Virus record (IMG/VR): IMGVR_UViG_3300017728_000037
Location: 1-37,438 of that record
Reading direction: 5' to 3' (one strand)
DNA: 37,438 nucleotides
From: a virus
In this document: positions 1-37,438 of the stretch, in pieces
Numbering within the stretch: position 1 is the first letter of the stretch
Layout of the letters: each line of letters opens with the position of its first letter
Notes under the pieces: model-generated
Databases searched by the model: none
Told to the model about the DNA's origin: nothing
What the model saw: only the letters and a program-made list of their open reading frames with translations
Translations under genes and position numbers: made by a program

Positions 1-123
1 AGGTCGTGGTTCCGACGGTATGCGCTCGTATAATGTTCGTGAGCAAAATACATTCGATCCTAGAGACGTTCGCTCCCTGTTCGCCGCATTCGACCCTGAG
101 TACACAGGCTCTAATATACTTGG
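1..123. repeat. Terminal direct repeat, left copy
   Basis: All 123 bases are identical to 37316-37438. The repeat lies inside one gene whose ART domain is completed only by joining the two ends. This is the signature of a circular assembly, as expected for a circularly permuted headful-packaged genome, rather than a functional repeat. Confidence 0.97.
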
Positions 124-1459
124 GTTTCAAGGCGGGTCACAATCACCATCACTTCTAAATGCTGCAACTCAATCCGCGGTAGGCGCGGCATCAATGGCAG
201 CCCCTGAGACGCCAGAGAGCGCGCTGTACGAAGGCTTAACAGACAAAATGGTCGATTACCTTACTGAGCAAATGGGTGGCTCAGAAGAGGATAGAGAGCG
301 CGCTGAGTATATATCGATGGGGATGGACTTCTTGCCATTTATCGGTGCTGCGAAAGGCGTATCTGAAACCTTTGATGCGTATAAGAACGACGATACGCTC
401 GGCATGGCTCTTGGTGCCGGAGGTATACTTGCCGGGATGATTCCGTTTGGTCGAGGTGCATACAAAAGTGCAGTAGGCATTGCCGAAGAAGCGCCATTAA
501 GAGACATAGACAAGCGCTTCAGCTATCAGCCAATGGATGGTGGTAATCAGCGAAAATTTGATATGGCGCGCGGTCAGTCGCTGGATTTCAATGTAGAAAA
601 TAGACCCCTAAATATACAGTCAGACAATCTTTCGTTAGCTGATTTTGAAGGTCGACCATACATATTCACGCAGTCAGACAGGTCGAGAGCGGGCGGCATT
701 CTCACAAGAGTAGGCGGTCAAGATATAGAGCCAATCGATCTTCGTGGTGGCCGGGACTTTATGTTTGACGCGCCTAGCGAGGGCATGGTCTGGGCGTCAG
801 CTCCAGATGTTGTTGGGAAGCTGGACTCAACGGCGCAAAAGCTTGCAAAAGAGTACGGCCAAGACCCATTGTTGCTTCCATATTCAATGCAACCTACGGG
901 AATAGATTTCAGTACGTTTCCTGTGGATGCCATGATTAACACGGCACGCAGTGGCATGTCCAAAACGAACATTAAAAAACTTGATAGTAAAATTAAAAAA
1001 ATCTTGCCGGATTGGCAGGGAGTGGCTAGTCCCGACTCTAATTATGCGTTTAGAACCGCTACAGGAGATCAGCGTAAAGCCATCATGCGATTAATCGATT
1101 CGGATTTTAAAGACGTGCCCGGAGGCATGTCGGCGGCTGAAGCTCGTGTGGTTACCTCTGATCCCGCTCAATACACGACATCAGGCGGCATGGTTACAAA
1201 TGTTGGTTTGCTAGATACATCTAAACCTATTTATGCCGATAGCGGGCATCCTACTTATATTGCCGGGCTTGCTGGCGAGGGTTTAGGCAGGCTTGAGAAT
1301 CCAGTCACAATCATGCCTCAATCTCGATTGCGCGGTAGAAATATTAGTGACACTCCAACTGACGCTGAGCTAGGTGCGGCAATGAGGTCTATGTCTATGA
1401 ACCCTGCGGCGCAGATTGGGTTGATCGATGAAGAATTCTTGCGCGCATACTACAAGTAA
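1..1459 (+). CDS. Putative ADP-ribosyltransferase, C-terminal part (5' end lies at the other contig end)
   Basis: The open frame enters from base 1 (codons in phase from base 2) and is the continuation of the frame starting at 36798. Joined across the duplicated 123 bases the protein has 658 residues. This part begins with the last strand of the ART domain: REQNTFDPRDVRS (about residues 186-198) aligns column by column with the usual EYVVFDPxQIRS ending of phage ART-PolyVal-like domains. E187 (bases 41-43) is the candidate catalytic glutamate, followed by AAFDPEYTG. After that come a Gly/Ala-rich hydrophobic stretch near bases 380-450 and a long C-terminal region without a motif I can name. 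The ATG at base 20 is internal and should not be used as the start. A virion-carried effector is possible by analogy with T4 Alt but not shown. Confidence 0.75.
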   Translation, partial: GRGSDGMRSYNVREQNTFDPRDVRSLFAAFDPEYTGSNILGFQGGSQSPSLLNAATQSAVGAASMAAPETPESALYEGLTDKMVDYLTEQMGGSEEDRERAEYISMGMDFLPFIGAAKGVSETFDAYKNDDTLGMALGAGGILAGMIPFGRGAYKSAVGIAEEAPLRDIDKRFSYQPMDGGNQRKFDMARGQSLDFNVENRPLNIQSDNLSLADFEGRPYIFTQSDRSRAGGILTRVGGQDIEPIDLRGGRDFMFDAPSEGMVWASAPDVVGKLDSTAQKLAKEYGQDPLLLPYSMQPTGIDFSTFPVDAMINTARSGMSKTNIKKLDSKIKKILPDWQGVASPDSNYAFRTATGDQRKAIMRLIDSDFKDVPGGMSAAEARVVTSDPAQYTTSGGMVTNVGLLDTSKPIYADSGHPTYIAGLAGEGLGRLENPVTIMPQSRLRGRNISDTPTDAELGAAMRSMSMNPAAQIGLIDEEFLRAYYK

Positions 1460-1464
1460 AGCGG

Positions 1465-1473
1465 TGATATAAT
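1465..1473 (+). promoter_or_regulatory. TGATATAAT extended -10-like motif, copy 1
   Basis: This is an exact match to the extended -10 consensus TGnTATAAT, directly abutting the ATG at 1474. No -35 hexamer is visible at 16-18 bp upstream. A transcript from here would start inside the gene at 1474, so it would serve the genes further downstream. The overlapping GGTGA can also act as the ribosome binding site of the 1474 gene, which is the competing explanation. Confidence 0.4.
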
Positions 1474-1713
1474 ATGGCGACACCGAGAAAAGGTAAGGCA
1501 CGAGTAAAAACCACGGCGTCTGGCAGAAAGGTTTCATATGGGCAGAAGGGCGCTAAGGTAAAGCCGGGGACAAGCAAGGGCGATTCATATTGCGCGCGCT
1601 CATTAGGTATAAAGAAGCGGCTGCCTAAGAGCAAGCAGAGCGACCCTAACACCCCTAACAACCTATCGAGAAAACGCTGGAAATGCTCCGGCGCAAAATC
1701 AAGGAGGAAGTGA
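1474..1713 (+). CDS. Small Lys/Arg-rich protein of unknown function (79 aa)
   Basis: This is the first of three consecutive, very basic miniproteins between the ADP-ribosyltransferase and the head-tail adaptor. It contains ASGRKVSYGQ followed by KPGTSKGDSYCARSLGIKK, a pattern I have seen in small proteins of marine phages, but I know no function. The high charge and location among late genes suggest nucleic-acid binding or a minor virion component, which is inference. GGTGA at 1464-1468 is a suitable ribosome binding site for the ATG. The stop overlaps the next start (TGATG). Confidence 0.75.
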   Translation: MATPRKGKARVKTTASGRKVSYGQKGAKVKPGTSKGDSYCARSLGIKKRLPKSKQSDPNTPNNLSRKRWKCSGAKSRRK

Positions 1714-1832: not shown

Positions 1833-1980
1833 GAAGAAGGGCCTGTACGACAACATCCACGCTAAGCGTAAGCGCATTAAGGCCGGCAGTGGTGAGAAGA
1901 TGCGGAAGGCCGGCGAGAAGGGCGCACCTACAGCTAAGCAGTTTAAAAAAGCAGCCAAGACGGCTAAGAAGCGTAAGTAA
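1822..1980 (+). CDS. Lys-rich miniprotein (52 aa)
   Basis: The frame starts MPSKKKGLYDNIHAKRKRI and continues with GSGEKMRKAGEKGAPTAKQF, ending in a Lys/Ala tail. The KKGLYxNIHAKRKRI and GSGEKMRK elements recur in small proteins of other marine phages as far as I recall. Function is unknown. The start overlaps the upstream gene by 11 bases, and the stop TAA shares its last base with the ATG of the adaptor gene at 1980. It therefore looks like a translationally coupled member of the connector operon. Confidence 0.75.
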   Translation: MPSKKKGLYDNIHAKRKRIKAGSGEKMRKAGEKGAPTAKQFKKAAKTAKKRK

Positions 1981-2627
1981 TGGCACTGACTAATCACACA
2001 GAGCTGAAAAGCTCTATTGCTGACTTCCTTAACCGTGATGATTTAACTTCGGTAATACCGACGTTTATTGCGCTAGCAGAGGCGCAAATCAATCGAGACG
2101 TACGGCATTGGAAGATGGAGAAGCGGGTCACAGGCGCCCTAGACAGCGAATACTCGCAGTTGCCCACTGACTGGCTTGAGACGATTCAAGTACACGTCGT
2201 TGGAGGTGGCACGTACCCTTTGCAGTTAGCGTCACGTGATGCGATTGCTGATAAGAGATCTGCACGTAACGATACAAGTGGGCGTCCTAAGTTTTACACG
2301 CACGCAGACTCCTCTCTTGAGCTATACCCGACCCCCGACGAGGCTTACTCCATAGAGCTTCTTTATTACGGCAAGGTCGATGCGTTGAGCGAACTCGTTC
2401 CTGTTAACTGGTTATTGCAAGATGCGGCCGATGTCTACTTGTACGGGTCGTTGATACATTCAGCGCCTTACTTGCAAGAAGATGGTAGGGCTGGCGTTTG
2501 GGCGCAAATGTACAGCGCAGCAGTGCAAAAGCTTAATCAAGCGTCAGAGAGAGGCCGTATGAGTGGTTCAGGCTTAACAATGAAGGTCCGCGGTTTAGGC
2601 GGCCCAAGAAGATTGTCTGTTAAATGA
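1980..2627 (+). CDS. Head-to-tail adaptor protein (SU10/P22 gp4-like)
   Basis: The 215-residue protein has the typical adaptor N-terminus: ELKSSIADFLNRDDL, then IPTFIALAEAQINRDVRHWKME, then LPTDWLE and later KFYTHADSSLELYPTP. This matches the podoviral adaptor family that forms the ring beneath the portal, where it closes the head and accepts the tail nozzle. Length is normal for the family. It begins on the stop codon of the preceding miniprotein and ends in an ATGA overlap with the next gene. Confidence 0.85.
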   Translation: MALTNHTELKSSIADFLNRDDLTSVIPTFIALAEAQINRDVRHWKMEKRVTGALDSEYSQLPTDWLETIQVHVVGGGTYPLQLASRDAIADKRSARNDTSGRPKFYTHADSSLELYPTPDEAYSIELLYYGKVDALSELVPVNWLLQDAADVYLYGSLIHSAPYLQEDGRAGVWAQMYSAAVQKLNQASERGRMSGSGLTMKVRGLGGPRRLSVK

Positions 2628-3045: not shown

Positions 3046-5730
3046 ATGTCTACGATTACAACACGCACAGGCAAAGGAAAGGCCCTCACACACGCCGAGT
3101 TAGACGACAACTTTATTAATTTGAACGCCGATAAGGCTGAGACGCTTGCCGATGTGGGTGTTACTGCGACTATTGACGAGGTAAACCTACTCGACGGCGC
3201 AACTCTATCGACCGCTGAACTGAATCTTCTCGACGGCGTAACGTCTACTACGGCCGAACTCAATATTTTGGATGGCGTGACATCCACTGCCGCTGAACTA
3301 AACATTCTTGACGGAGTAACGTCTACCACCGCTGAATTGAACATTCTCGATGGGGTCACTGCGACTACCGCAGAGTTGAACATCATGGATGGTGTTACAG
3401 CGACGACTGAAGAGCTTAACTACGTCGACGGCGTTACGTCTGCCATACAGACACAAATCGACACCAAGGCTCCGAGTGCTGGCGCCTCACTAACTGGCAC
3501 GACATCGTTTGAGTCGCTATCCGACGGGACCATCACTGTCACTGCGTTCGTTGATGAGGACGATATGTCGTCCAACAGCGCAGGCTTAGTGCCGACTCAG
3601 CAGTCAGTAAAAGCATATGTTGACAGCCAAGTAACAGCGCAGGATCTAGATGTCACGAGCGATAGCGGAACTATAGCTATCGATTTAGATTCTGAAACCA
3701 TGACAATCGCTGGTGGCGAGGGAATTGATACCTCTGCTACCGGGAACACGGTAACGATTGCCGGCGAAGACGCCTCGACGTCGAATAAGGGCGTTGCGAA
3801 GTTTGACTCAGCGGATTTTGCCGTTAGCTCTGGCGAAGTAAATCTGGTGACCTCTGCTGCTGCATTTGGGGCAGTGGGCGACGGCACCACTGATGACACG
3901 ACTGCGCTGCAATCGGCAATGGATTCTGTTGCTGTATCTGGCGCATGGTTAGATGGCGCCAACAAGACGTATTTAATCACAACGACCATCGATGTCGACC
4001 AAGGTGCGTTCTGCCGTATGCGTAACTTTAAGTTTAAGTTAGGTACGTCATACACCGACCAAGGTAGATTTAACTGCGACGCTGGGTCAGGCACTACGGC
4101 TATGACTGTCGCACTAGATAACATCGTTTTAGACGGCGGTCGTGGTGATTACAAATCAGGCAATGAGCCTTGGACTGATACAACAACGGACTTCGGTGGC
4201 TATGACACAATTGAGCCATCTCTAAGCGCGTTTTTTAAGGTAAACGCCAAAAATGAAGAGACAACGACGCACATTACTAATTGCCGGTTTGAGAACCATC
4301 ACGGAATAGCCGCGGTGCGAGTAGACTCTTACGGCACCACAATCATTCAAGGCTGCGTTTTTAAGAACTTGTCTTTCCAAAGCTTCGCAGTTTATCAGGC
4401 TGTATTCGACAGCAATGACAATATTACGGCCCATAAAGGCCGCACTATCGTTTCTGACGTTTATGCAGAAAATGTTGGGCTGCTACCGGACACATTTGCA
4501 GTCGGCGGAACGGCTATGACGTTTGCGTCTACTACAGCGGCACCGCAAGGCTCTTTTAACTTTCTTGCCATAGGCGGCGAGTACAGTCTGTCAAACGCTA
4601 CTTGCAAAAACTACGCCTCATGCGGCGTTACTGCGGATCGCAACGAAAAGTTTAATGCCACCAACATCACGATCACTAACGACTCAGATCGATCGTTCTC
4701 TAGCAACCCATCGGGTGCGTTCTGGATAGAGGGCTGTGAGGAGTCAAATGTCACAAACCTCACGGTAGAGATTACGGCGCGAGCGACCATCGACACGACA
4801 GGCTTAGATAATTGTCTGCTGCAAATTTATCTGAAAGACGGGAATAAAGTCTTTTTTAACAACGTTTTTCTAAAGACAGACGAGTCTACGGCTTACGTTA
4901 ACAAGCTCATACGAAGCTCGGGGAAGGGCGCAGCGCATTGCCACATAGAAAATTTCTACGTCTCAGGAATCTGCCGCAACCTTGATGACGCCGTCAGCTT
5001 CTTGCTGTTGCCAAACTCTACTATCGAGCACGACGTTCGGCTCCTTCACGGCTATATCAAGCACGGCGACATTAAGATTGAAGTGCCTTACAACGCCACT
5101 GTGCAGGATGTTTACCTTGAGGGTGCATCAGGTAATGGTGACGTTTTATTTATCCCTGCGGGCAATGCAGGCGTCACAGGGAGCGTTGGCGATGCCACTG
5201 TCACTGGATGCTATATCGACGGCACTGTTAGCAACACCACAGCGTTTACAGGCAGTCTCAATATTATCGGCAACAAGTACATCGGCTCAGTTACATCGAC
5301 AGGATCGGGCAACACAGGCAAGTTTGTCGTTAGTGACAATGCTCGCATCGCTGGCGGCCTTGCGGTGACATGTTCGGGGCCGACAGGTAACTCAGCGGTC
5401 GAGATACGCGGCAACGCTTTGATTGAGGGCGTTACCCGGGTAGACGGTGCAAACAACGCCATAATTAGCGACAACAACACAGAGCGGCGGATTACGATAG
5501 AGGACGTGCAGCACTTCCAAGTTGTCGGCAACACAGCAAAGACCGACACCGCAGAGTCGTGCATTTTTGTTTACCCAACAACCGCAAGCAACATTTTGGC
5601 GGGTATCATTAGCGGCAATAACTGCCTGATAAAAACAGGCACAAGTGGCGCGGGTTACATCACTCTTGCTAGTAGCGTCACGAACGTAATGGAAGGCTTG
5701 AACAACAAGCTGATAGTCAACTGGTCATAA
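3046..5730 (+). CDS. Tailspike: LDGVT-repeat stalk plus pectate-lyase-like beta-helix
   Basis: This is an 894-residue tail protein. Residues about 42-138 consist of seven 14-residue repeats of the form [14 protein letters not shown]. Around residue 272 the sequence FGAVGDGTTDDTTALQSAM is the classical opening of the pectate-lyase-3 superfamily right-handed beta-helix. The rest is rich in short N/T/G-containing rungs such as NCRFENHHGIAAVRV and GCVFKNLSF. Such trimeric beta-helices bind and often degrade surface polysaccharide, so this is the best candidate for a capsule or LPS depolymerase. The N-terminal repeats resemble those of the fibre gene at 11955. SD AGGG lies at 3033-3036. Confidence 0.85.
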   Translation: MSTITTRTGKGKALTHAELDDNFINLNADKAETLADVGVTATIDEVNLLDGATLSTAELNLLDGVTSTTAELNILDGVTSTAAELNILDGVTSTTAELNILDGVTATTAELNIMDGVTATTEELNYVDGVTSAIQTQIDTKAPSAGASLTGTTSFESLSDGTITVTAFVDEDDMSSNSAGLVPTQQSVKAYVDSQVTAQDLDVTSDSGTIAIDLDSETMTIAGGEGIDTSATGNTVTIAGEDASTSNKGVAKFDSADFAVSSGEVNLVTSAAAFGAVGDGTTDDTTALQSAMDSVAVSGAWLDGANKTYLITTTIDVDQGAFCRMRNFKFKLGTSYTDQGRFNCDAGSGTTAMTVALDNIVLDGGRGDYKSGNEPWTDTTTDFGGYDTIEPSLSAFFKVNAKNEETTTHITNCRFENHHGIAAVRVDSYGTTIIQGCVFKNLSFQSFAVYQAVFDSNDNITAHKGRTIVSDVYAENVGLLPDTFAVGGTAMTFASTTAAPQGSFNFLAIGGEYSLSNATCKNYASCGVTADRNEKFNATNITITNDSDRSFSSNPSGAFWIEGCEESNVTNLTVEITARATIDTTGLDNCLLQIYLKDGNKVFFNNVFLKTDESTAYVNKLIRSSGKGAAHCHIENFYVSGICRNLDDAVSFLLLPNSTIEHDVRLLHGYIKHGDIKIEVPYNATVQDVYLEGASGNGDVLFIPAGNAGVTGSVGDATVTGCYIDGTVSNTTAFTGSLNIIGNKYIGSVTSTGSGNTGKFVVSDNARIAGGLAVTCSGPTGNSAVEIRGNALIEGVTRVDGANNAIISDNNTERRITIEDVQHFQVVGNTAKTDTAESCIFVYPTTASNILAGIISGNNCLIKTGTSGAGYITLASSVTNVMEGLNNKLIVNWS
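3169..3459 (+). repeat. Tandem 42-bp coding repeats (LDGVT type) in the tailspike
   Basis: About seven 42-nt units encode (T/A)AELNxLDGVTxT. The amino-acid sequence is far better conserved than the codons (for example LDGV is spelled with several codon sets), so selection acts on the protein. The repeats probably form the stalk linking the virion-binding end to the beta-helix. Confidence 0.9.
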
Positions 5731-5739
5731 GGTAACGAC

Positions 5740-8700
5740 ATGGATTTCATCGACCACAGAAGCACGGCAAAGTTCATATTCAAGACTTCAGCGACCGATG
5801 AGAAGGCTCGCATTGATGAATCTGGCAACATCCTCACGGGCAAGACCTCCAGTAACTTTAGTACGGCAGGCGCAGAAGTTCGCAATCTAGGAAATATATG
5901 GGCGACACGAGACGGCGGCACACCCTTAGCGTTGAACCGCCTTTCTAGTGAAGGGACGATCGCACAGTTTTATAAGGATGGCAGTTCGTTAGGCGTCATT
6001 GCGTCGGTTAGCAGTGACTTTGTTATTTACTCAACAATATCAGGCCACACTGGCTTGCGTTTTGGTGACGGCTGGATTGGTTCGACTAACAACGCAGGCA
6101 CCCTACAAAACGGCACTGTCAGCCTTGGAACAACAGCGTATAAATTTGCTGACTTGCATTTATCGGGCAATGCCAACATCGGCGGCAATGCCACAATTAC
6201 TGGCGACCTAACCGTTAACGGCACTACGACCACAATCAACACTGCCACGCTGGACGTTGAAGACAAGAACATCACGCTGAACTACGGCGCGGGCGACACG
6301 TCATCGACAGCCGATGGCGCGGGTATCACCATCCAAGACGCGGTGGATGCAAGCAACAACGCCACTATCTTGTGGGATGCAACTAACGACGAGTTTGATT
6401 TCAGCCACAACATTACAGCGCCTAACCTAAGTATCAGCAATTGGAACACAGCGTACGGTTGGGGTGATCACTCAACTCAGGGATATTTGACTAGCTACAC
6501 AGAAGCAGACACGCTTGATTCTGTTACTGGTCGTGGCGCTACGACGACTAATGCTATTAGCACGGGCGCTATTACGAGTAGCGGTGCTATATCAGCTCAA
6601 AATACTTTGACCATACAAAACTCTAGCGCATACGGAGCTATCGAGGTTGGCGGTGTATCTGGCGGCTTCATCGACATCAAGAGTCCATTCTCTGACGACT
6701 ACGATCTACGTCTGATATCAACGGGTGACGGCGGTGTATTAAACGTCGCTAGTGGCGAGCTAACGATACAGCGAGCAGGGTCGGCCAAGCTTGCGACTAC
6801 AAGCACAGGCATAGCGGTCACAGGTGATGCGACGTTTGCTGACAACGGCAAGGCTATTTTCGGCGGGGGTAGCGACCTACAGATCTACCATGATGGGGCT
6901 AATAGCTACATATCAGATGCAGGAACAGGATTGTTTCAGCTTCGCACCAACGGCACTCGAATTGAAATGGTTGGTCAAAGTGGGTCTGAATACATGGCAC
7001 GTTTTGAACAAGATGGTGCTGTAAAACTTTACTACGACAACAGCCTAAAACTAGCCACAACCTCCACAGGCATTAACGTTACAGGTAACGCTACGTTTGG
7101 CGATAACGGTAAAGCCATTTTTGGTGCCAGCTCTGACCTACAGATTTACCATACGCCAACAGGCAACCATTCAATTATTACTGAATCAGGTTCTGGCAAC
7201 CTTATTCTTGCCGCAGATAACCTTGAAATAAATAATGCCGCAAACAATGCAAACAAAATAGTAGCTACGACTGGCGGTGCGGTAACCCTTTTCCATAACA
7301 ACTCAGCCAAACTAGCCACCACCTCTACAGGCATTGACGTAACTGGAAGTGTCGTCAGCGACGGTTTGACTGTTGATGGTGCTTCGCAGACTACATCACT
7401 GAAGATAAACACAAGTTCTTCTGCGTGGGCTGATGCTAATGCTGATGACTTGATTATTAGAGGCGCTGATGTTGGTTTAACAGTTAGCTCGTCAACAACA
7501 GGTAATATTTATTTTGGTGATGCTACAACAGCACAGAAGCAAGGTCAGATTACTTACACACATTCGTCTGATTCTTTGTCTTTTGCAACTGCTGGCACAG
7601 AACGCCTCCGCATTAATTCGTCAGGGTTTGCGGGTCTGGGTACTGGCTCGCCAGCGGCCAAGTTAGATATCGTCGACACAGCCTCTGACGTACAGATGCG
7701 CGTCTACAAGAACGACGGCACTAAGAACACACGGGTTACGGTAACGGCTGACGACAGCGGCGCTAAGATCCACTACCGAGATGCAGACAACGCAGGCGCA
7801 CTAAGGTTTAACAACAACCTTGGCGAGGTCATGCGGATTCCTGCTGATACCACGCGGGTAGGTATTGGCACTAGCAGTCCGTCAGCTAGGTTAGATGTAC
7901 AACAGGCAACGGCTGGAAACATAGTTTCAGCAGAGTTTGATAACACTGACTACACGGCAAACAATCGTAATGCTATAAAAATTAGACAGCAGGTTAGTTC
8001 AAGCGGTAGCTACTCAGCATATTTAGGTTCTGATAAAAACACAGGTAACCTTTTCTTAGCTAATGACTCTATTACCGCAAACCATTTAGTTATTAACCCC
8101 TCTGGCAACGTAGGTATCGGTAGAGTTTCAAATTCAGTTGTTAGATTGTCTGTTGCAGGAACGGACGCAGGTGCCAGCAATTACGCATTTGAAGCTACGA
8201 ACAGTTCGGCCGCCACTAGATTTATCGTACGTAACGACGGACAAAGCCAGTTTTTCAAAAGCGATAACTCCGCATCGATGACGGTGACCAGCGGCGGGAA
8301 TGTTGGTATTGGCACTAGCAGTCCGTCAGGATTGCTTAATGTCCACAGTGCTTCTGGTGATGCTAATGTATTTATTACTACAGGCACTACAAATGCGTCG
8401 ACTACGTTGCTTTTTGGTGATAGCGGCAGTAGTACGATAGGTCGAGTACAATACGACCACAGCGATAACTCCATGCGTTTTCAAACCAACGCATCTGAAG
8501 CCATGCGTATCGACTCTAGCGGTAATGTTGGAATTGGCACTAGTTCGCCTAGTGGTAAGTTACATGTAAAAGCCTCAAGTGGTTTTGCTACAGGGTATGT
8601 GCAGGGTTCAAATAGCTCTTCTGGAATGTATTTATTTGACCAAGGTGTTGAAGCTGGGCTTTGGAAAGTTGATTTAGGCTATTTAGCTTTTGGCACAAAC

Positions 8701-11043
8701 AACACAGAACGCATGCGCATAGATGCTAGCGGTCAAGTTGGTATCGGATGTACTCCCGCCTCGACTGTCTCACTAGACGTTCAAAATTTGTCTGCAAGTT
8801 CTAACAATGTTTTCTTGCGTATAAAAAACGCAACAAATTTAGAAGATTCAGGTCTTATTATTGAAGGTCAAAACGGAGGCGCAAGGGAATACAAGATTGG
8901 TGTAAATTCCATTGCTAATAGTCCCGACCTTACATTTAGCGGCCCTACAGGTTACAGGTATTATATCGGCGCTACAGAAGCCATGCGCATCGACTCAAGC
9001 GGCAACTTGCAAATGCAAGCAGGAGACATAACTACAGTTACAGGTGGAAGTTATAAACTCCAAAACGGCGTAGAAAGCGCCTCAAATCCTACTTTCACAT
9101 TTAGTGGCGACGACGACACGGGTATGTATCGTGCTTCAGCGGATACAATCGCCTTTTCTACAGCGGCCGCAGAACGTATGCGTATCGACTCTAGCGGCAA
9201 TGTTGGTATTGGGGCTTCACCGTCATCCCATAGCTTAGAGGTGTGGCGTTCAGGTGGAGACCATTTACTTTTAGGGCGTAGCGGCGTAGGCACATATGAG
9301 CTTGGCATTTCTTCTGACAATGCTTTGACTTTTGAGGATGACGGCTCAGAAGCCATGCGTATCGACTCTAGCGGTCGTGTTGGTATCGGCACTAGCAGTC
9401 CAGAAACGAATCTACACATAGAAGACTCTTCTTCATTTTCTATTATTCGATTGGTTTCAAGCACTACTGAAAACGCTGGTATAGACTTTGGCGACCCTGA
9501 TGACAGAGATATTGGTCGTGTTCGTTATAACAACAGCGATAACTCTATGGTGTTTCATACAAACGCCGCAGAACGCATGCGTATCGACTCTAGCGGGAAT
9601 GTTGGTATCGGCACAAGCAGTCCAAACACTGTAACTAACTATACAGGCTTGACGCTTAACAACGCTACCTATGGAGGGTTCATTGATATTGAAAACAATG
9701 GGACTCACACCTTTAGATTGCTATCAAACACTACTGCAAGTTACATTGGAACTATAGAGTCTGACCCTCTAGTATTTAATACAGTTGACACAGAACGCAT
9801 GCGTATCGACTCGACGGGTCGTGTAGGTCTGGGTACAAATTCACCGGACGTTAAGCTCGATATAGTTGACACTGCCGCAGACGTTCAATTACGTGTCTAT
9901 AAGTTTGACGGTACTAACAACACACGTCTTACTCTGACTGCCGATGACAGTGGTGCCAAGATCCACTACAGAGACGCTACAAACGGCGGTGCCTTGCGCT
10001 TCAATAACAACGCAGGGGAGATGGCTAGGTTTGATTCGAGCGGCAATCTTCTTGTGGGGACTACTACGTACAATTCAGCAAACCAAGGCATTTTACTTGG
10101 CGCAACGGGGGCGATTTACTCAACTAACACAAGTGGAATTTCTGGTAGTTTTGGCCGCAACACAACGGACGGGTCAATCTTAAACTTCCGCAAAGACAAC
10201 GTTAACGTGGGAAGCGTTGGCACCAAGCTGTCTGATGGCGGCACAAGTGATGGTGAGCTGTTTATAACTAGCGGAAACACTGGATTATTTTTCGATGACA
10301 TTGGAAGTTATATCCGACCCTGTAATGGCTCTGCCGCTTTGCGTGACAACACCGTTGACTTAGGCAAGTCAGATTCGCGCTTCAAAAACCTTTACCTGTC
10401 AGGCAATGTAACTTCAAGCGGAACTTTTAGAGGCGGCGCTGGTAGTGCATCAACCCCAACATTCCTTACTGACGGCTCTACAGGAATGTTTAGAGCGTCA
10501 TCCAATGACATTGGCTTTAGTTGTGCTGGAAGTGAGGTTGCTAGGTTTGATAGCTCTGGCAACTTGCTGGTTGGTACTACTTCTACTACAGCAGACGAAG
10601 GTGGACTTGTTTTAATCCCGCAAACATCAAATGTTTCGCACATGTATATCGGTCATGCCACAGGAACCGCTGGTGGCAATCCCTATATGTATTTCCGGTA
10701 TGGCTCAGGAAACATTGGAAGCATTACGCAATCAGGGACTACAGCTGTTCAGTACAACACCTCATCAGACCAACGCCTCAAAGAAAACATTGCAGACGCA
10801 CCTTCTGCTTCTGACGACATAGACGCTATCCAAGTACGTTCGTTCGACTGGAAGGCTGACGGTTCACACCAGAAGTACGGCATGGTTGCTCAGGAACTAC
10901 AGAACGTTGCACCAGAGGCAGTCAGTGGAGACGCAGACTCAGACGACATGATGGGCGTAGACTACTCAAAGCTAGTACCTATGATGTTAAAAGAAATTCA
11001 ATCACTACGTGCCAGAGTGGCACAACTCGAAGGAGAAAACTAA
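5740..11043 (+). CDS. Giant tail fibre with C-terminal S74 intramolecular chaperone (1767 aa)
   Basis: The C-terminus carries SSDQRLKENI (residues about 1675-1684), the Ser-Asp autocleavage site of peptidase S74 chaperone domains. It is followed by FDWKADGSHQKYGMVAQEL and a terminal coiled coil ending LRARVAQLEGEN. The roughly 91-residue domain should drive trimer folding and then cut itself off. Upstream are about thirteen copies of a RMRIDSSGNVGIGTSSP-type motif and two LQIYH modules, giving a long beta-rich shaft. A 56-residue segment occurs twice (bases 7660-7827 and 9853-10020). The N-terminus lacks an obvious virion-anchor domain, so it may attach through the preceding tailspike, whose stop is 9 bases upstream (SD AAGGT). 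Confidence 0.88.
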   Translation: MDFIDHRSTAKFIFKTSATDEKARIDESGNILTGKTSSNFSTAGAEVRNLGNIWATRDGGTPLALNRLSSEGTIAQFYKDGSSLGVIASVSSDFVIYSTISGHTGLRFGDGWIGSTNNAGTLQNGTVSLGTTAYKFADLHLSGNANIGGNATITGDLTVNGTTTTINTATLDVEDKNITLNYGAGDTSSTADGAGITIQDAVDASNNATILWDATNDEFDFSHNITAPNLSISNWNTAYGWGDHSTQGYLTSYTEADTLDSVTGRGATTTNAISTGAITSSGAISAQNTLTIQNSSAYGAIEVGGVSGGFIDIKSPFSDDYDLRLISTGDGGVLNVASGELTIQRAGSAKLATTSTGIAVTGDATFADNGKAIFGGGSDLQIYHDGANSYISDAGTGLFQLRTNGTRIEMVGQSGSEYMARFEQDGAVKLYYDNSLKLATTSTGINVTGNATFGDNGKAIFGASSDLQIYHTPTGNHSIITESGSGNLILAADNLEINNAANNANKIVATTGGAVTLFHNNSAKLATTSTGIDVTGSVVSDGLTVDGASQTTSLKINTSSSAWADANADDLIIRGADVGLTVSSSTTGNIYFGDATTAQKQGQITYTHSSDSLSFATAGTERLRINSSGFAGLGTGSPAAKLDIVDTASDVQMRVYKNDGTKNTRVTVTADDSGAKIHYRDADNAGALRFNNNLGEVMRIPADTTRVGIGTSSPSARLDVQQATAGNIVSAEFDNTDYTANNRNAIKIRQQVSSSGSYSAYLGSDKNTGNLFLANDSITANHLVINPSGNVGIGRVSNSVVRLSVAGTDAGASNYAFEATNSSAATRFIVRNDGQSQFFKSDNSASMTVTSGGNVGIGTSSPSGLLNVHSASGDANVFITTGTTNASTTLLFGDSGSSTIGRVQYDHSDNSMRFQTNASEAMRIDSSGNVGIGTSSPSGKLHVKASSGFATGYVQGSNSSSGMYLFDQGVEAGLWKVDLGYLAFGTNNTERMRIDASGQVGIGCTPASTVSLDVQNLSASSNNVFLRIKNATNLEDSGLIIEGQNGGAREYKIGVNSIANSPDLTFSGPTGYRYYIGATEAMRIDSSGNLQMQAGDITTVTGGSYKLQNGVESASNPTFTFSGDDDTGMYRASADTIAFSTAAAERMRIDSSGNVGIGASPSSHSLEVWRSGGDHLLLGRSGVGTYELGISSDNALTFEDDGSEAMRIDSSGRVGIGTSSPETNLHIEDSSSFSIIRLVSSTTENAGIDFGDPDDRDIGRVRYNNSDNSMVFHTNAAERMRIDSSGNVGIGTSSPNTVTNYTGLTLNNATYGGFIDIENNGTHTFRLLSNTTASYIGTIESDPLVFNTVDTERMRIDSTGRVGLGTNSPDVKLDIVDTAADVQLRVYKFDGTNNTRLTLTADDSGAKIHYRDATNGGALRFNNNAGEMARFDSSGNLLVGTTTYNSANQGILLGATGAIYSTNTSGISGSFGRNTTDGSILNFRKDNVNVGSVGTKLSDGGTSDGELFITSGNTGLFFDDIGSYIRPCNGSAALRDNTVDLGKSDSRFKNLYLSGNVTSSGTFRGGAGSASTPTFLTDGSTGMFRASSNDIGFSCAGSEVARFDSSGNLLVGTTSTTADEGGLVLIPQTSNVSHMYIGHATGTAGGNPYMYFRYGSGNIGSITQSGTTAVQYNTSSDQRLKENIADAPSASDDIDAIQVRSFDWKADGSHQKYGMVAQELQNVAPEAVSGDADSDDMMGVDYSKLVPMMLKEIQSLRARVAQLEGEN
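7660..7827 (+). repeat. Internal duplicated segment of the giant fibre, copy A
   Basis: This encodes 56 residues beginning KLDIVDTASDVQMRVYK. By eye 47 of the 56 residues match copy B at 9853-10020 with no gaps. The nucleotide sequences have diverged at many third positions, so the duplication is old or recombined with relatives. Confidence 0.9.
9853..10020 (+). repeat. Internal duplicated segment of the giant fibre, copy B
   Basis: This encodes 56 residues beginning KLDIVDTAADVQLRVYK, the same length as copy A at 7660-7827 and in the same frame. Each copy is followed by a different version of the SSGNxxxGT motif, consistent with modular exchange of fibre segments. Confidence 0.9.
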
Positions 11044-14296: not shown

Positions 14297-14946
14297 GCCT
14301 TGCCCCTCCTCCATTTGGGCCCGAGTGGAAGGGCTGGGGCGAGCGACTTGTTGATCATCTCAACAGGATACGGTCAAAACTTGTATTTAAGCAGGCCGGG
14401 GACAGTGCAAATGAAGACGGCATTATTCTGTATGACAACACAAACAAGTACCCGGTGGTATCTATCGATGGTGTGTATAAGCAGATAGTTTTAGCGGACG
14501 GTCACGGGGACTTCGTTATTTCTTCTGATTATGCTTACGCAGCAGCAGATACGACGTATGAATTAAGTTACACCGCAGACAGTAACAATGAAGGATTACC
14601 GATCAACGGTTCTCGTATTACCTTTAGCGAGACTGGCTATTACCTTGTAAGTTTTTCTGCTCAGATATTCAGCTCGTCAGCAAGTACAGTTGAGTTTGTG
14701 TTTTGGCCGAAGAAAAACGGCACAAACATGACAGGTAGCACCATAAGAGCGGCATTACACGGCAACGCAGAAACCACTGTAGTCAGCCGCGCAGTCATTA
14801 TTCACGCCATCGCAAACGATTATTTAGAGGTAGCTACGGCCTGTAACAGTACCAACGGATCTCTCAAAGCGTTCGCTGCAAACGGTATTTCTAATGAGCC
14901 TGCATGCCCAGCAACTACATTAACGATCATACGAGTCCATAGGTGA
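14293..14946 (+). CDS. Putative beta-jelly-roll virion protein (217 aa, GTG start)
   Basis: After an N-terminal amphipathic part (GPEWKGWGERLVDHLNRI), the second half reads GSRITFSETGYYLVSFSAQ, then VEFVFWPKKNG and SRAVIIHAIANDYLEV. This strand order resembles C1q/TNF-like jelly rolls found at the tips of fibres or on capsids. The start is GTG in a GTGA overlap with the preceding stop, so translation is coupled. A receptor-contacting or decoration role is inferred from fold and context only. Confidence 0.6.
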   Translation: MSLAPPPFGPEWKGWGERLVDHLNRIRSKLVFKQAGDSANEDGIILYDNTNKYPVVSIDGVYKQIVLADGHGDFVISSDYAYAAADTTYELSYTADSNNEGLPINGSRITFSETGYYLVSFSAQIFSSSASTVEFVFWPKKNGTNMTGSTIRAALHGNAETTVVSRAVIIHAIANDYLEVATACNSTNGSLKAFAANGISNEPACPATTLTIIRVHR

Positions 14947-14952
14947 TATAAT
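14944..14952 (+). promoter_or_regulatory. TGATATAAT extended -10-like motif, copy 2
   Basis: This is an exact TGATATAAT whose last T is the first base of the TTG start at 14952. No -35 match is visible 16-18 bp upstream. As at 1465, an AGGTGA sequence overlaps it and serves as the ribosome binding site, so the motif could be translational rather than transcriptional. Confidence 0.4.
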
Positions 14953-27464: not shown

Positions 27465-27967
27465 GCGAAGACATCGAAGATCAGGTCAAGATGGTAACCG
27501 GGCATGTGTCCAAGATGTCATGGGGTGCGCGTATTGCGGCCTTTAGTGTGGTTAGTAGCTTGTGTGGAACGCTATATGGCGGGTTCTTGATGTATCAGAA
27601 GGTCGAAGAGATCGCTACGCTCGATCTTGGTGCATACCAGCAGCAGATGGAAGTCATGGACACCAAGGTGACTGAGGCCGTGGAGTATAGCCGGGACATT
27701 AAAAATGGTCTGCGCGATGATATAATCAGGATCGAACAGCAGGCAGATCGCACTGAGGATTTAGTACGAAGTAGCACTCGTGAGCTACGTGACGCTATGG
27801 ATACTGTGCAGAAAGATGCGCGTGAGATGATAGACGCGGCAGATGATCGATTCGAGACGCGACGTGAGCAGTTGCGGGCCTCTCAAGATCAAGACATGAA
27901 GGAGCTGGAAGAGCGGTTAGAGGCGCTAGTCCAGAAGGCATTAGACAACCCACTGGCGGACAAGTAA
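27461..27967 (+). CDS. Membrane-anchored coiled-coil protein, possible inner-membrane spanin (168 aa)
   Basis: One transmembrane segment (residues about 22-46, IAAFSVVSSLCGTLYGGFLM) follows a short cytoplasmic N-terminus. The rest is a long charged coiled coil to residue 165. This topology fits an i-spanin or a lysis-cassette accessory protein, and it is the first gene of the lysis group. TTG is the start, in a TTGA overlap with exported protein 5. No classical Rz motif is recognised, so the function remains a guess. Confidence 0.6.
   Translation: MSEDIEDQVKMVTGHVSKMSWGARIAAFSVVSSLCGTLYGGFLMYQKVEEIATLDLGAYQQQMEVMDTKVTEAVEYSRDIKNGLRDDIIRIEQQADRTEDLVRSSTRELRDAMDTVQKDAREMIDAADDRFETRREQLRASQDQDMKELEERLEALVQKALDNPLADK
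27718..27726 (+). promoter_or_regulatory. TGATATAAT extended -10-like motif, copy 3 (intragenic)
   Basis: An exact TGATATAAT lies within the coiled-coil gene, about 240 bases before the XhlA-like gene. No ribosome binding site overlap explains it here. It could provide a promoter for the holin and endolysin. The -35 region (ATTAAA at 27698-27703) is poor, as allowed for extended -10 promoters. Confidence 0.4.
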
Positions 27968-35204: not shown

Positions 35205-35510
35205 GTGGCAACGACTAGACGGCAGAAAGTTCGCGCTGTGAAAGATGAAGAGAACAGACGCGCATTAAGCATTAGGGGTAAGGCCGAATACATCTTTGAT
35301 TTAATTGATCAAATCGGCGAACTTAACCCATCAGAAGACGAGCACTTCGCAGCTAAGGTACAGCAGAAGAAGACACAGGCTGAACTACGGCTCAAGATGC
35401 TCGCTAAGACGCTACCTGACCTCAAGCAAGTCGATGCTGACTTAACAAGTAGCGATGGTTCCATGACTCCACCAATGGTGATTGAACTTGTCGCAAAAGG
35501 TCTCGATTGA
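35205..35510 (+). CDS. terS: Terminase small subunit (101 aa, GTG start)
   Basis: It is assigned mainly from its place directly upstream of and overlapping the large terminase subunit. The protein is helical, with KAEYIFDLIDQIGELNPSED, then KKTQAELRLKMLAKTLPDLK and a C-terminal PPMVIELVAKGLD, the sort of acidic beta end seen in small terminases. GTG 35205 is chosen because GAGGA at 35192-35196 precedes it and it does not intrude on the upstream gene. It should recognise the pac site for headful packaging. Confidence 0.7.
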   Translation: MATTRRQKVRAVKDEENRRALSIRGKAEYIFDLIDQIGELNPSEDEHFAAKVQQKKTQAELRLKMLAKTLPDLKQVDADLTSSDGSMTPPMVIELVAKGLD

Positions 35511-36768
35511 ACTACCGCCTAAACTAGCCAGCCTTTTTACAGGCGAGGCTAGATACCGTTGCTCATACGGTGGCCGAGGGAGCGCTAAGACTCGCTCATT
35601 CGCTCTAATGACTGCCGTATGGGGTATGCGTTGGGGCGTAGCTGGTAAGCAAGGGCAGATCCTGTGCGCTCGTGAACACCTCAACTCACTCGATGAATCC
35701 TCTATGGAAGAGGTGAAGTCAGCTATCCGCTCAGTTCCTTGCCTCATGGATTACTACGAGATAGGCGAGCGATACATTCGTAGCCGAGACGGTAGAATCA
35801 CATACGTCTTTGCCGGCCTACGCAGGAACCTCGATAGCATTAAGTCCAAGGCCCGTATTCTACTGTGCTGGGTCGATGAGGCTGAGACTGTTACTGAGAC
35901 GGCTTGGCAGAAGCTTATCCCTACAGTGCGAGAGGACGACTCTGAGATATGGGTAACGTGGAACCCTGAGAACAAGCACTCTGCTACGCACCATCGATTC
36001 CGGGTAGCAGAGCCTGAGCAGTGCAAGATCATAGAAATGAACTGGCGGGATAATCCGTGGTTCCCCCATGTGCTAGAACAAGAGCGTCAGGAAGACCTCA
36101 AGAAGCGGCCGGATGTCTACGATCATATCTGGGAGGGTGACTTTAGGATCTTCTCAGAGGGCGCGTACTACACGCAGGAGATGGCTAACGCCTTACACGA
36201 GAACCGTATCGATCGTGTGCCATACGAGCGGTCAGTAGGTGTAGTGACGGCATGGGACTTAGGTGTAGGTGATTCTACCTCTATTTGGTTTGCTCAGTTT
36301 GTCGGTCCAGAAGTGAGACTGATCGATTACTACGAGAATGCGGGAGTCGGGTTAGATCACTACGCACGGATACTGCAAGAGAAGGGTTACATTTACGAGC
36401 AGCACATCCTTCCACATGATGTCCGTGTCAGGGAGCTAGGTAGTGGCCGGTCGAGACTAGAGGTTTTGGATAACTTAGGCGTACGCCCGGTACAAATTGC
36501 ACCACAGCTTAATGTAGACGATGGCATACAAGCGGTCAGGTCTATGCTTGATCTATGCTACTTCGATAAGGACAAATGCGAGAAGGGCATCGATTGCCTC
36601 AGGCAGTATAGGCGTCAGTACAACGAGACGATGATGGTTTGGAATGAGCGGCCGTTACACGACTGGACATCACACTGCGCGGATGCCTTCCGCTACCTCG
36701 CAATTGGCTACAGAAAGACCTCGAATTGGGGTGAGCCGTTGCGGCGGAATTTACAGGGCATTGTCTGA
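35482..36768 (+). CDS. terL: Terminase large subunit (428 aa)
   Basis: Walker A is GGRGSAKT (residues 30-37) and Walker B with the catalytic Glu is VDEAE (132-136). The RNase-H-like nuclease has TAWDLGVGDS (D260), HDVRVRE (D314) and CADAFRYLA (D401). This is the Terminase_3/6-type packaging motor with ATPase and headful nuclease. The start is uncertain: TTG 35482 gives a 29-base overlap, and TTG 35488 or a rare ATT at 35506 (AAAGGT upstream) are alternatives. The length is normal for the family. Confidence 0.93.
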   Translation: MNLSQKVSIELPPKLASLFTGEARYRCSYGGRGSAKTRSFALMTAVWGMRWGVAGKQGQILCAREHLNSLDESSMEEVKSAIRSVPCLMDYYEIGERYIRSRDGRITYVFAGLRRNLDSIKSKARILLCWVDEAETVTETAWQKLIPTVREDDSEIWVTWNPENKHSATHHRFRVAEPEQCKIIEMNWRDNPWFPHVLEQERQEDLKKRPDVYDHIWEGDFRIFSEGAYYTQEMANALHENRIDRVPYERSVGVVTAWDLGVGDSTSIWFAQFVGPEVRLIDYYENAGVGLDHYARILQEKGYIYEQHILPHDVRVRELGSGRSRLEVLDNLGVRPVQIAPQLNVDDGIQAVRSMLDLCYFDKDKCEKGIDCLRQYRRQYNETMMVWNERPLHDWTSHCADAFRYLAIGYRKTSNWGEPLRRNLQGIV

Positions 36769-36774
36769 TATAAT
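36766..36774 (+). promoter_or_regulatory. TGATATAAT extended -10 promoter candidate before the ADP-ribosyltransferase
   Basis: An exact TGATATAAT begins in the terminase stop codon. The predicted start near 36781 would give a leader of about 17 nt carrying the ribosome binding site GGAGG (36789-36793), a sensible layout for the gene at 36798. No -35 hexamer is seen at 16-18 bp. This is the best placed of the four copies in the genome. Confidence 0.5.
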
Positions 36775-36797
36775 CGGGCTTCCATACTGGAGGCTCT

Positions 36798-37438
36798 ATG
36801 GCAATTGGCACACGCTTACGCGGCATTCTTGATGAACTCATAGCTACTGGTTACCCTGATCAGGTGGCTGAGCGTATTGCTTCTGGCGACCTTCCGATGG
36901 ATACGGCCTCTCGTATGCAGCGTGCTGAGGCTATGGGCTTCGATCCTTTAAATGTTGCTTATCACGGTACGAGAGCTGACGTTGCAGAGTTTGAGCCTAG
37001 CGTGCGCGGCAAAATGGGGCCGGGGATTTACACGTCACCATCCCCTGTTGTTGCAGGCAGTTACTCTACGCCCGGACATCGCATACCACGTAGTGGCGTT
37101 TATGAAGATCGCGGACTTCTTGATGAAGAGCTGTTGGTAAGCGAAGGCGCAAATGTGATGCCCTTGTTGTTGCGTGGCGATAGGATGGAGCGGTTTGAAG
37201 CACTAAAGCAGAACCCTGACATACCAATTGCCATGCTATCTGAGCCCACAACAGAGGGCGCTAGTGAGCTTGCTACAAGATTACAACGAGAGGGCATTAC
37301 CGGCCTTGAGATACAAGGTCGTGGTTCCGACGGTATGCGCTCGTATAATGTTCGTGAGCAAAATACATTCGATCCTAGAGACGTTCGCTCCCTGTTCGCC
37401 GCATTCGACCCTGAGTACACAGGCTCTAATATACTTGG
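36798..37438 (+). CDS. Putative ADP-ribosyltransferase, N-terminal part (continues at base 1)
   Basis: After GDLPMDTASRMQRAEAMGFD, a linker usual in phage polyvalent-type proteins, comes the ART core: AYHGTRADVAEFEPS (H56), then GPGIYTSPSPVVAGSY (Y78 and Y89), with E187 beyond the cut. The spacing fits the PARP-like H-Y-E group. The frame is open to base 37438 and continues in phase at base 2. GGAGG at 36789-36793 precedes the ATG. Phage ARTs (T4 Alt, ModA, ModB) modify host proteins, and similar roles in virion or cell are inferred here. Target unknown. Confidence 0.75.
   Translation, partial: MAIGTRLRGILDELIATGYPDQVAERIASGDLPMDTASRMQRAEAMGFDPLNVAYHGTRADVAEFEPSVRGKMGPGIYTSPSPVVAGSYSTPGHRIPRSGVYEDRGLLDEELLVSEGANVMPLLLRGDRMERFEALKQNPDIPIAMLSEPTTEGASELATRLQREGITGLEIQGRGSDGMRSYNVREQNTFDPRDVRSLFAAFDPEYTGSNIL
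37316..37438. repeat. Terminal direct repeat, right copy
   Basis: Identical to bases 1-123. It can be removed when closing the genome, leaving a unit of about 37,315 bp. Confidence 0.97.

What the first reader, a model, noticed from the sequence alone, without database searches (positions are those of the whole stretch)
36798..37438. ADP-ribosyltransferase with intact H-Y-E residues split by the contig cut
AYHGT, GIYTS and REQNTFDPRDVRS line up with the H, Y and E motifs of PARP-like phage ARTs, but the Glu is encoded only after base 1. Annotated as a linear contig, the enzyme would be missed and the 479-aa remainder would look like an orphan. The 658-aa protein lies between terminase and connector genes with its own candidate promoter, so it may be a virion-delivered effector.
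Basis: partly seen in the sequence, partly recalled or inferred. Interest (0 to 1): 0.7.

Follow-up and report, generated by a model that had tools for sequence, protein, structure and literature searches.

The report
Phage ADP-ribosyltransferase in swappable effector cassette
A marine phage gene split only by the ends of its circular contig encodes a PARP-like ADP-ribosyltransferase domain, and related phages carry the same slot between the same neighbouring genes but swap the enzyme core and tail modules, as expected of an effector injected into bacteria under an arms race.

Summary
The contig is circular: bases 1-123 repeat 37316-37438 exactly. The 658-aa gene is 36798-37438 continued at 124-1459, and an independent 99.96%-identical contig (L001) carries it unbroken. 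Because of the repeat, motif 3 lies inside the 3' piece as well, so the ART domain is complete at the contig's right end and is not lost.

The ART fold is supported: PARP/tankyrase and diphtheria-type neighbours for residues ~45-200, and a cryo-EM domain of the cyanophage A4 pre-ejectosome as best match. H56, Y78 and D192 are invariant; E187 is not (E/D/I/M/Q, N in canonical polyvalent ARTs). The published triad for polyvalent ARTs is H-Y-D, so "H-Y-E" is doubtful.

The larger result is around it. Among 36 relatives with TerL at least 90% identical, this slot holds 9 ART-core types, 4 linkers and 6 C-terminal types in 19 combinations, exchanged between constant leader and hinge sequences behind a conserved extended -10 motif. 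Other cargo includes PBECR5 nuclease, LPD23/metallopeptidase and ART duplicates. The C-terminal domain is widespread in uncultivated phages, absent from Pfam/PHROGs, and confidently modelled.

Virion delivery is likely but unproven.

The parts
36766..36774 (+). TGATATAAT, extended -10 promoter-like motif overlapping the TerL stop codon
   Evidence: 26 of 29 distinct upstream sequences of relatives carry it; ATTGTCTGATATAAT 96-100% conserved while flanks drift; 4 copies in window vs 0.23 expected
36789..36793 (+). GGAGG ribosome-binding site of the ART gene
   Evidence: sequence; conserved in relatives
36798..37438 (+). 5' part of the ART-fusion gene (residues 1-213); contains the complete ART domain
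   Evidence: PF18760 E=2.6e-5, 25.5 bits; fold match residues 45-200
36798..36953 (+). constant leader module, residues 1-52
   Evidence: mostly 80-98% nucleotide identity to relatives with different ART cores, apart from a few divergent starts
36954..37373 (+). exchangeable ART core, residues 53-192 (H56 at 36963-36965, Y78 at 37029-37031, E187 at 37356-37358, D192 at 37371-37373)
   Evidence: 9 sequence types among TerL-similar relatives; H56, Y78, D192 invariant
37374..37436 (+). constant hinge, residues 193-213 (PRDVRSLFAAFDPEYTGSNIL), directly after motif 3
   Evidence: 78-88% nucleotide identity where both flanks are unrelated; motif found in most members
37316..37438 (+). right copy of the 123-bp exact terminal repeat (assembly overlap of a circular genome)
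1..123 (+). left copy of the 123-bp terminal repeat (also encodes E187 and D192)
2..1459 (+). 3' part of the ART-fusion gene (residues 174-658 and stop)
   Evidence: whole gene uninterrupted in L001 1608-3584
122..499 (+). exchangeable linker module, residues 214-339, low-confidence in the model, with a Gly/Ala-rich hydrophobic stretch at about residues 304-323
   Evidence: 4 linker types in relatives; long stretches with pLDDT under 50; hydropathy
500..1456 (+). C-terminal domain, residues 340-658; widespread phage domain without Pfam or PHROGs family; PUA/YTH/EVE/ASCH-like core by structure only
   Evidence: AF2 pLDDT 91.3, pTM 0.88; 415 relatives in IMG/VR; VIA matches; no Pfam/PHROGs hit
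1465..1473 (+). second TGATATAAT, directly before the downstream 79-aa gene
1474..1713 (+). small basic 79-aa protein, conserved right border of the cassette
   Evidence: present 8-27 bp (or about 171 bp) downstream of the ART gene in most relatives
1980..2627 (+). SU10-type head-tail adaptor, conserved right neighbour
   Evidence: PF24175 E=1.6e-34
35482..36768 (+). terminase large subunit, conserved left neighbour
   Evidence: PF04466 E=5.2e-23; phrog_3717 E=1.4e-62

Best explanation
The gene encodes a phage effector of the polyvalent type. An N-terminal leader and a PARP-like mono-ADP-ribosyltransferase domain are joined by a short constant hinge and a variable linker to a C-terminal domain. 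It is expressed from its own extended -10 promoter with the head-assembly genes, most likely packaged in the virion and ejected with the DNA, and then uses NAD+ to ADP-ribosylate a host macromolecule early in infection. Shown here: gene structure and circular junction, ART fold (predicted) and conserved H/Y/D residues, the fixed late-gene slot, the conserved promoter-like motif, and exchange of ART core, linker and C-terminal module between close relatives. Inferred: promoter activity, catalytic activity, packaging and ejection, target, and that the exchange is driven by recombination at the constant leader and hinge under selection from host defences.
For: ART fold: Foldseek PDB hits for the model are dominated by PARP and tankyrase domains; VIA puts residues 45-200 on 9k3a_B (cyanophage A4 pre-ejectosome) Z 8.0, SAIP catalytic domain 7.1, tankyrase/PARP 6.1-6.6, diphtheria toxin 6.3; BFVD neighbours include ART-PolyVal proteins. 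Sequence: PF18760 hit in 42 of 54 relatives; H56, Y78, D192 invariant. Slot: TerL upstream and the 79-aa gene/adaptor/Gp80 downstream in nearly all relatives. Virion precedent: 9k3a_B is the 1717-aa A4L_27 protein of Anabaena phage A-4L. Exchange: nucleotide identity falls from 75-95% to 22-60% inside modules and returns at the hinges; 19 combinations in 31 complete proteins. Cargo typical of polyvalent proteins: PBECR5, LPD23, Zeta toxin. Literature: phage ARTs beside terminase and portal genes are predicted to be packaged (PMC9503650; PMC5512222).
Against: No virion proteomics or activity data. The window protein itself is below the PF18760 cut-off (25.5 vs 31.2 bits). ART-part model confidence is uneven (block means 38-90), VIA Z values of 6-8 are modest, and the A4 match rests on fold plus the first two motifs; Pfam finds no ART in the A4 protein. 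The third catalytic residue is unresolved; some relatives lack an acidic residue at the E187 position.
Confidence: 0.57

Rival explanations
1. The protein is made late in infection and acts inside the cell without being packaged, for example modifying host or superinfecting-phage targets, as T4 ModA/ModB act after synthesis in the host.
For: It has its own conserved promoter-like motif separate from TerL, and no packaging signal was found. Other non-virion genes (a PAPS-reductase-like gene, a methyltransferase-like gene) sit in the same slot in relatives.
Against: Fixed place among head and packaging genes in nearly all relatives; polyvalent-type cargo; ART-like fold in a solved pre-ejectosome.
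Confidence: 0.23
2. A virion ejection or structural protein whose ART-fold domain is no longer an enzyme and is kept as a scaffold or channel part.
For: The best structural match is a domain of the A4 pre-ejectosome, not an enzyme with known activity. The E187 position is I, M or Q in some relatives.
Against: In this protein and most relatives H, Y, an acidic residue at 187 and D192 are all kept, and ART cores diversify strongly while TerL stays 92-98% identical, which fits an effector better than a scaffold.
Confidence: 0.12
3. A competition toxin of polymorphic-toxin type (superinfection exclusion or bacteriocin-like), not an early takeover effector.
For: Constant leader with exchangeable toxin-like modules, including nuclease and Zeta toxin, resembles polymorphic toxins; HYD2 ARTs are shared with toxin systems (PMC9503650).
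Against: No immunity gene is recognised beside it; the downstream 79-aa gene is constant while the modules change, unlike a matched immunity gene.
Confidence: 0.06
4. Artefact: the gene or the mosaic pattern is produced by misassembly.
For: Nearly all relatives are metagenomic contigs; the gene spans the contig ends.
Against: L001 carries the gene unbroken at 99.96% identity; 19 combinations occur across many samples with divergent, not identical, joints.
Confidence: 0.02

Closest known systems
Phage polyvalent proteins with ART-PolyVal domain (Tox-ART-HYD2 clade; Iyer et al. 2017, PMC5512222)
   Same: ART domain with H and Y motifs and invariant D, fused to other modules, encoded next to virion genes; relatives carry LPD23, PBECR5 and tandem ARTs.
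   Different: Compact 658-aa protein; scores below the PF18760 cut-off; C-terminal domain not in Pfam or PHROGs; ART core, linker and C-terminal module exchanged between constant leader and hinge in one phage group.
Phage T4 Alt
   Same: Predicted to work alike: ART packaged in the head and injected with DNA (PMC5512222).
   Different: Alt is an R-S-E-type ART (PMC5512222); this one is H-Y type and no test here linked the two by sequence.
Cyanophage A4 (Anabaena phage A-4L) pre-ejectosome protein A4L_27, PDB 9k3a chain B
   Same: Residues 1418-1600 match the ART domain by fold (Z 8.0, 117 aligned) and carry YHGT and GxGxYF motifs; it is part of the virion.
   Different: 1717-aa protein of a different phage family; similarity confined to this domain; whether its domain is an active enzyme could not be checked.
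PARP/tankyrase catalytic domains
   Same: Fold and the HG / GxGxY motifs.
   Different: About 10-18% identity; third motif differs (E187 variable, D192 invariant).
YTH/EVE/ASCH (PUA-like) domains, for the C-terminal domain
   Same: All VIA matches with Z of 4 or more are of this superfamily (YTH 7.6, PH1033 6.5, ASCH 5.0).
   Different: Z under 8, about 132 of 319 residues, long helical insertion, no profile similarity to EVE and no Pfam hit.

Membership tests
ADP-ribosyltransferase superfamily, H-Y clade | ART fold | tested here: met
   Residues 45-200 match PARP, tankyrase, diphtheria-type ARTs and the A4 domain; Z 6-8, uneven pLDDT
ADP-ribosyltransferase superfamily, H-Y clade | catalytic H in strand 1 and Y in strand 2 | tested here: met
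   H56 in strand 48-58 and Y78 in strand 76-80, invariant in 27 relatives
ADP-ribosyltransferase superfamily, H-Y clade | NAD+-dependent transferase activity | not testable with these tools
   needs biochemistry
ART-PolyVal (PF18760) | score over the curated cut-off (31.2 bits) | tested here: not met
   25.5 bits, E 2.6e-5; relatives do pass (L030 31.7, L037 50.9 bits), so it is called ART-PolyVal-related, not a PF18760 member
ART-PolyVal / Tox-ART-HYD2 | H-Y-D active site with D in strand 5 | tested here: inconclusive
   D192 invariant and aligned with the D of NYVxFDD in canonical members, but E187 is also present and the strand ends at residue 190 in the model
   E in 33 of 42 modules, otherwise D, I, M, Q; N in canonical polyvalent ARTs
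Phage polyvalent protein | two or more functional domains in one polypeptide | tested here: met
   ART plus separate C-terminal domain; relatives with PBECR5, LPD23/metallopeptidase, tandem ART
Phage polyvalent protein | encoded beside virion/packaging genes | tested here: met
   TerL upstream, adaptor and Gp80 downstream in window and relatives
Phage polyvalent protein | delivered with the DNA | not testable with these tools
   no virion proteomics available
YTH/EVE/ASCH (PUA-like), for the C-terminal domain | PUA-like fold | tested here: inconclusive
   coherent list of PUA-like matches but Z at most 7.6
EVE (PF01878), for the C-terminal domain | profile similarity | tested here: not met
   hhalign probability 0.2% against 9 EVE domains; no hit in Pfam scan

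The most novel reading that the evidence does not exclude
The slot between terL and the adaptor is a combinatorial effector cassette: phages of one group keep promoter, leader and hinge constant and exchange ART core, linker and C-terminal effector by recombination at these short joints, one hinge lying directly behind ART motif 3, so that new injected effectors are assembled without disturbing the packaging genes around them.
Probability: 0.5. Interest if true: 0.68.

Novelty: new variant of a known kind. Interest (0 to 1): 0.52.

Why it matters
Polyvalent ARTs are predicted to be injected, but direct evidence is scarce beyond T4 Alt. This group offers a natural experiment: nearly identical packaging genes with different effectors in the same slot, so host range or defence sensitivity could be tied to single modules. 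It also exposes a widespread, confidently folded C-terminal phage domain that Pfam and PHROGs lack, and an unannotated ART-like domain in a solved phage pre-ejectosome.

Tried and rejected
(1) 'Enzyme lost by the contig cut': rejected, the repeat keeps the whole ART domain in the right-hand piece. (2) Physical terminal repeat: not favoured, because L001 runs through the junction; the 123 bp look like an assembly overlap. (3) PHROGs and NCBIfam for the ART protein: nothing useful. (4) PDB sequence search with the single protein: only a chance hit, 2pyq; with the profile, 9k3a_B at E 9.5. (5) The C-terminal Pfam hits CBM_11 and MAP are weak and taken as chance. (6) EVE membership of the C-terminal domain by profile: not supported. 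Of the PUA-like hits no member family can be named. (7) Whole-model Foldseek against PDB has no hit under E 0.001; the fold call rests on the consistency of the hits. (8) Plasmids: no relative; genome contigs: two distant loci in MAGs of Rhodobacterales and Azospirillum. (9) The A4 paper (Hou et al., PNAS 2025, known from the reference list of PMC12810830) is not held, so copy number and the authors' view of the domain could not be checked. (11) The two contig ends were not joined in silico; the natural intact gene in L001 was used. (12) A consensus promoter scan does not report the motif because no -35 is present. (13) hhalign of the ART profile against canonical ART-PolyVal modules and against the A4 domain aligns only the H and Y motifs, with low probability (38% and 28%).

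Full report
Observation. The window is a circular phage contig: its first and last 123 bases are identical. An ORF starts at 36798 and runs off the right end (213 aa); the same frame enters at base 2 and ends at 1459. The statement that the glutamate is encoded only after base 1 is wrong: REQN begins at 37353 and, through the repeat, again at 38. The right-hand piece alone holds the entire ART domain.

What the N-terminal part is. Pfam ART-PolyVal matches residues 53-91 with E 2.6e-5, under its curated cut-off. Of 54 relatives 42 match it, best E 3.7e-13. In 27 aligned relatives H56, Y78, F191, D192 and P193 are invariant. The AF2 model of the intact L001 protein (44 sequences, mean pLDDT 71.9) has H56 in strand 48-58, Y78 in strand 76-80, and E187 in strand 184-190. 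Foldseek lists mainly tankyrase and PARP domains (best E 0.048). VIA gives, for residues 45-200, the cyanophage A4 pre-ejectosome chain (Z 8.0, 117 residues, 4.0 A), then SAIP 7.1, tankyrase 6.6, PARP13 6.6 and diphtheria toxin 6.3. Each score is modest, but all matches to this part are ARTs or the A4 domain.

Which residue is third. Over 42 modules with a recognisable hinge that position is E in 33, D in 5, I in 2, M in 1, Q in 1; in canonical ART-PolyVal modules (L069, L073, L086) it is N, in N-Y-V-x-[FY]-D-D. D192 is invariant in the close family. Iyer et al. (PMC5512222) describe polyvalent ARTs as H-Y-D with the D in strand 5. From my own knowledge E187 has the place of PARP1 Glu988, so E187 may still work here; the two cannot be separated by these data.

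The cassette. The gene lies 33 bp after TerL and before a 79-aa basic gene, the SU10-type adaptor and Gp80 in nearly all relatives. Nucleotide identity along the gene falls and rises in blocks. Against L002 and L003 it is about 75-92% through residue 213 and about 30-53% after it; against L032 it is about 37-58% in residues 53-192 and 87-100% after. Leader (1-52) and hinge (193-213) stay similar whichever block changes. In 36 loci whose TerL is at least 90% identical to the window's, there are 9 ART-core types, 4 linker types and 6 C-terminal types, and 31 complete single-ART proteins show 19 combinations. Close relatives end in a PBECR5 nuclease (L019), LPD23 with a metallopeptidase-like domain (L009), DUF7178 (L013) or carry a second ART module (L030 and L037 by sequence); a more distant one (L053) ends in Zeta toxin. 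Upstream, ATTGTCTGATATAAT is 96-100% conserved per base in 26 of 29 distinct sequences; the window holds TGATATAAT four times against 0.23 expected. In some relatives another gene is inserted between TerL and the cassette and the motif is kept.

The C-terminal domain. Residues 340-658 were modelled alone with 47 relatives: pLDDT 91.3, pTM 0.88. A viral scan found 415 stretches encoding relatives; of the best 80, many are stand-alone 400-480-aa proteins near a terminase gene, without ART. Pfam and PHROGs have no such family and only one isolate phage record matches. VIA matches with Z of 4 or more are all YTH, EVE or ASCH domains, best 7.6 over 132 residues, but a profile comparison with EVE fails. 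A PUA-like core with a long helical insertion is a reasonable reading, not a result.

Function. Virion delivery is inferred from the slot, from polyvalent-type cargo, from the published rule that ARTs next to terminase and portal genes are probably packaged (PMC9503650), and from the A4 precedent: 9k3a_B is the 1717-aa A4L_27 protein, whose residues 1418-1600 match this ART domain in fold and carry YHGT and GSGTYF. Pfam does not see that domain. The A4 paper was not available.

Verdict. The ART protein is a new relative of phage polyvalent ARTs. What lifts it is the modular exchange in a constant frame, which I did not find described for this group in the passages read here, and the unnamed C-terminal domain. 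Packaging, activity and target remain to be shown.

Noticed in passing
L017:5220-5960, L025:449-1189, L048:1109-1849: A 246-aa gene that looks like a PAPS-reductase/DndC-type protein (SFSGGRSSAMM) is inserted between TerL and the ART cassette in some relatives, with the ATTGTCTGATATAAT motif (or a near copy) kept behind it.
   Followed up: partly
L032:719-1210: A 163-aa methyltransferase-like ORF (DPPH motif) occupies the same insertion point between TerL and the cassette.
   Followed up: no
window 14944-14952 and 27718-27726: Two further exact TGATATAAT sites on the + strand; the first lies directly at the start of the ORF at 14952. They may be further phage promoters.
   Followed up: no
L183:20410-21102 (minus strand): Anabaena phage A-4L protein A4L_27, annotated 'tail protein' and solved in the pre-ejectosome (9k3a_B), has an ART-like domain near residues 1418-1600 that Pfam does not recognise.
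   Followed up: partly
L113-L182 (e.g. L142:3557-4894): The C-terminal domain occurs as a stand-alone 400-480-aa gene near terL in many uncultivated phages; no Pfam or PHROGs family covers it.
   Followed up: partly
L037, L048, L030, L084: Tandem ART modules in one polypeptide, each followed by its own hydrophobic linker ending in an APEEAEA-like sequence.
   Followed up: partly
window 3046-5730 and 5740-11043: Large repetitive tail proteins ([13 protein letters not shown] repeats; RIDSSGNVGIGTSSP repeats with a C-terminal S74 chaperone, E 3.1e-12).
   Followed up: no
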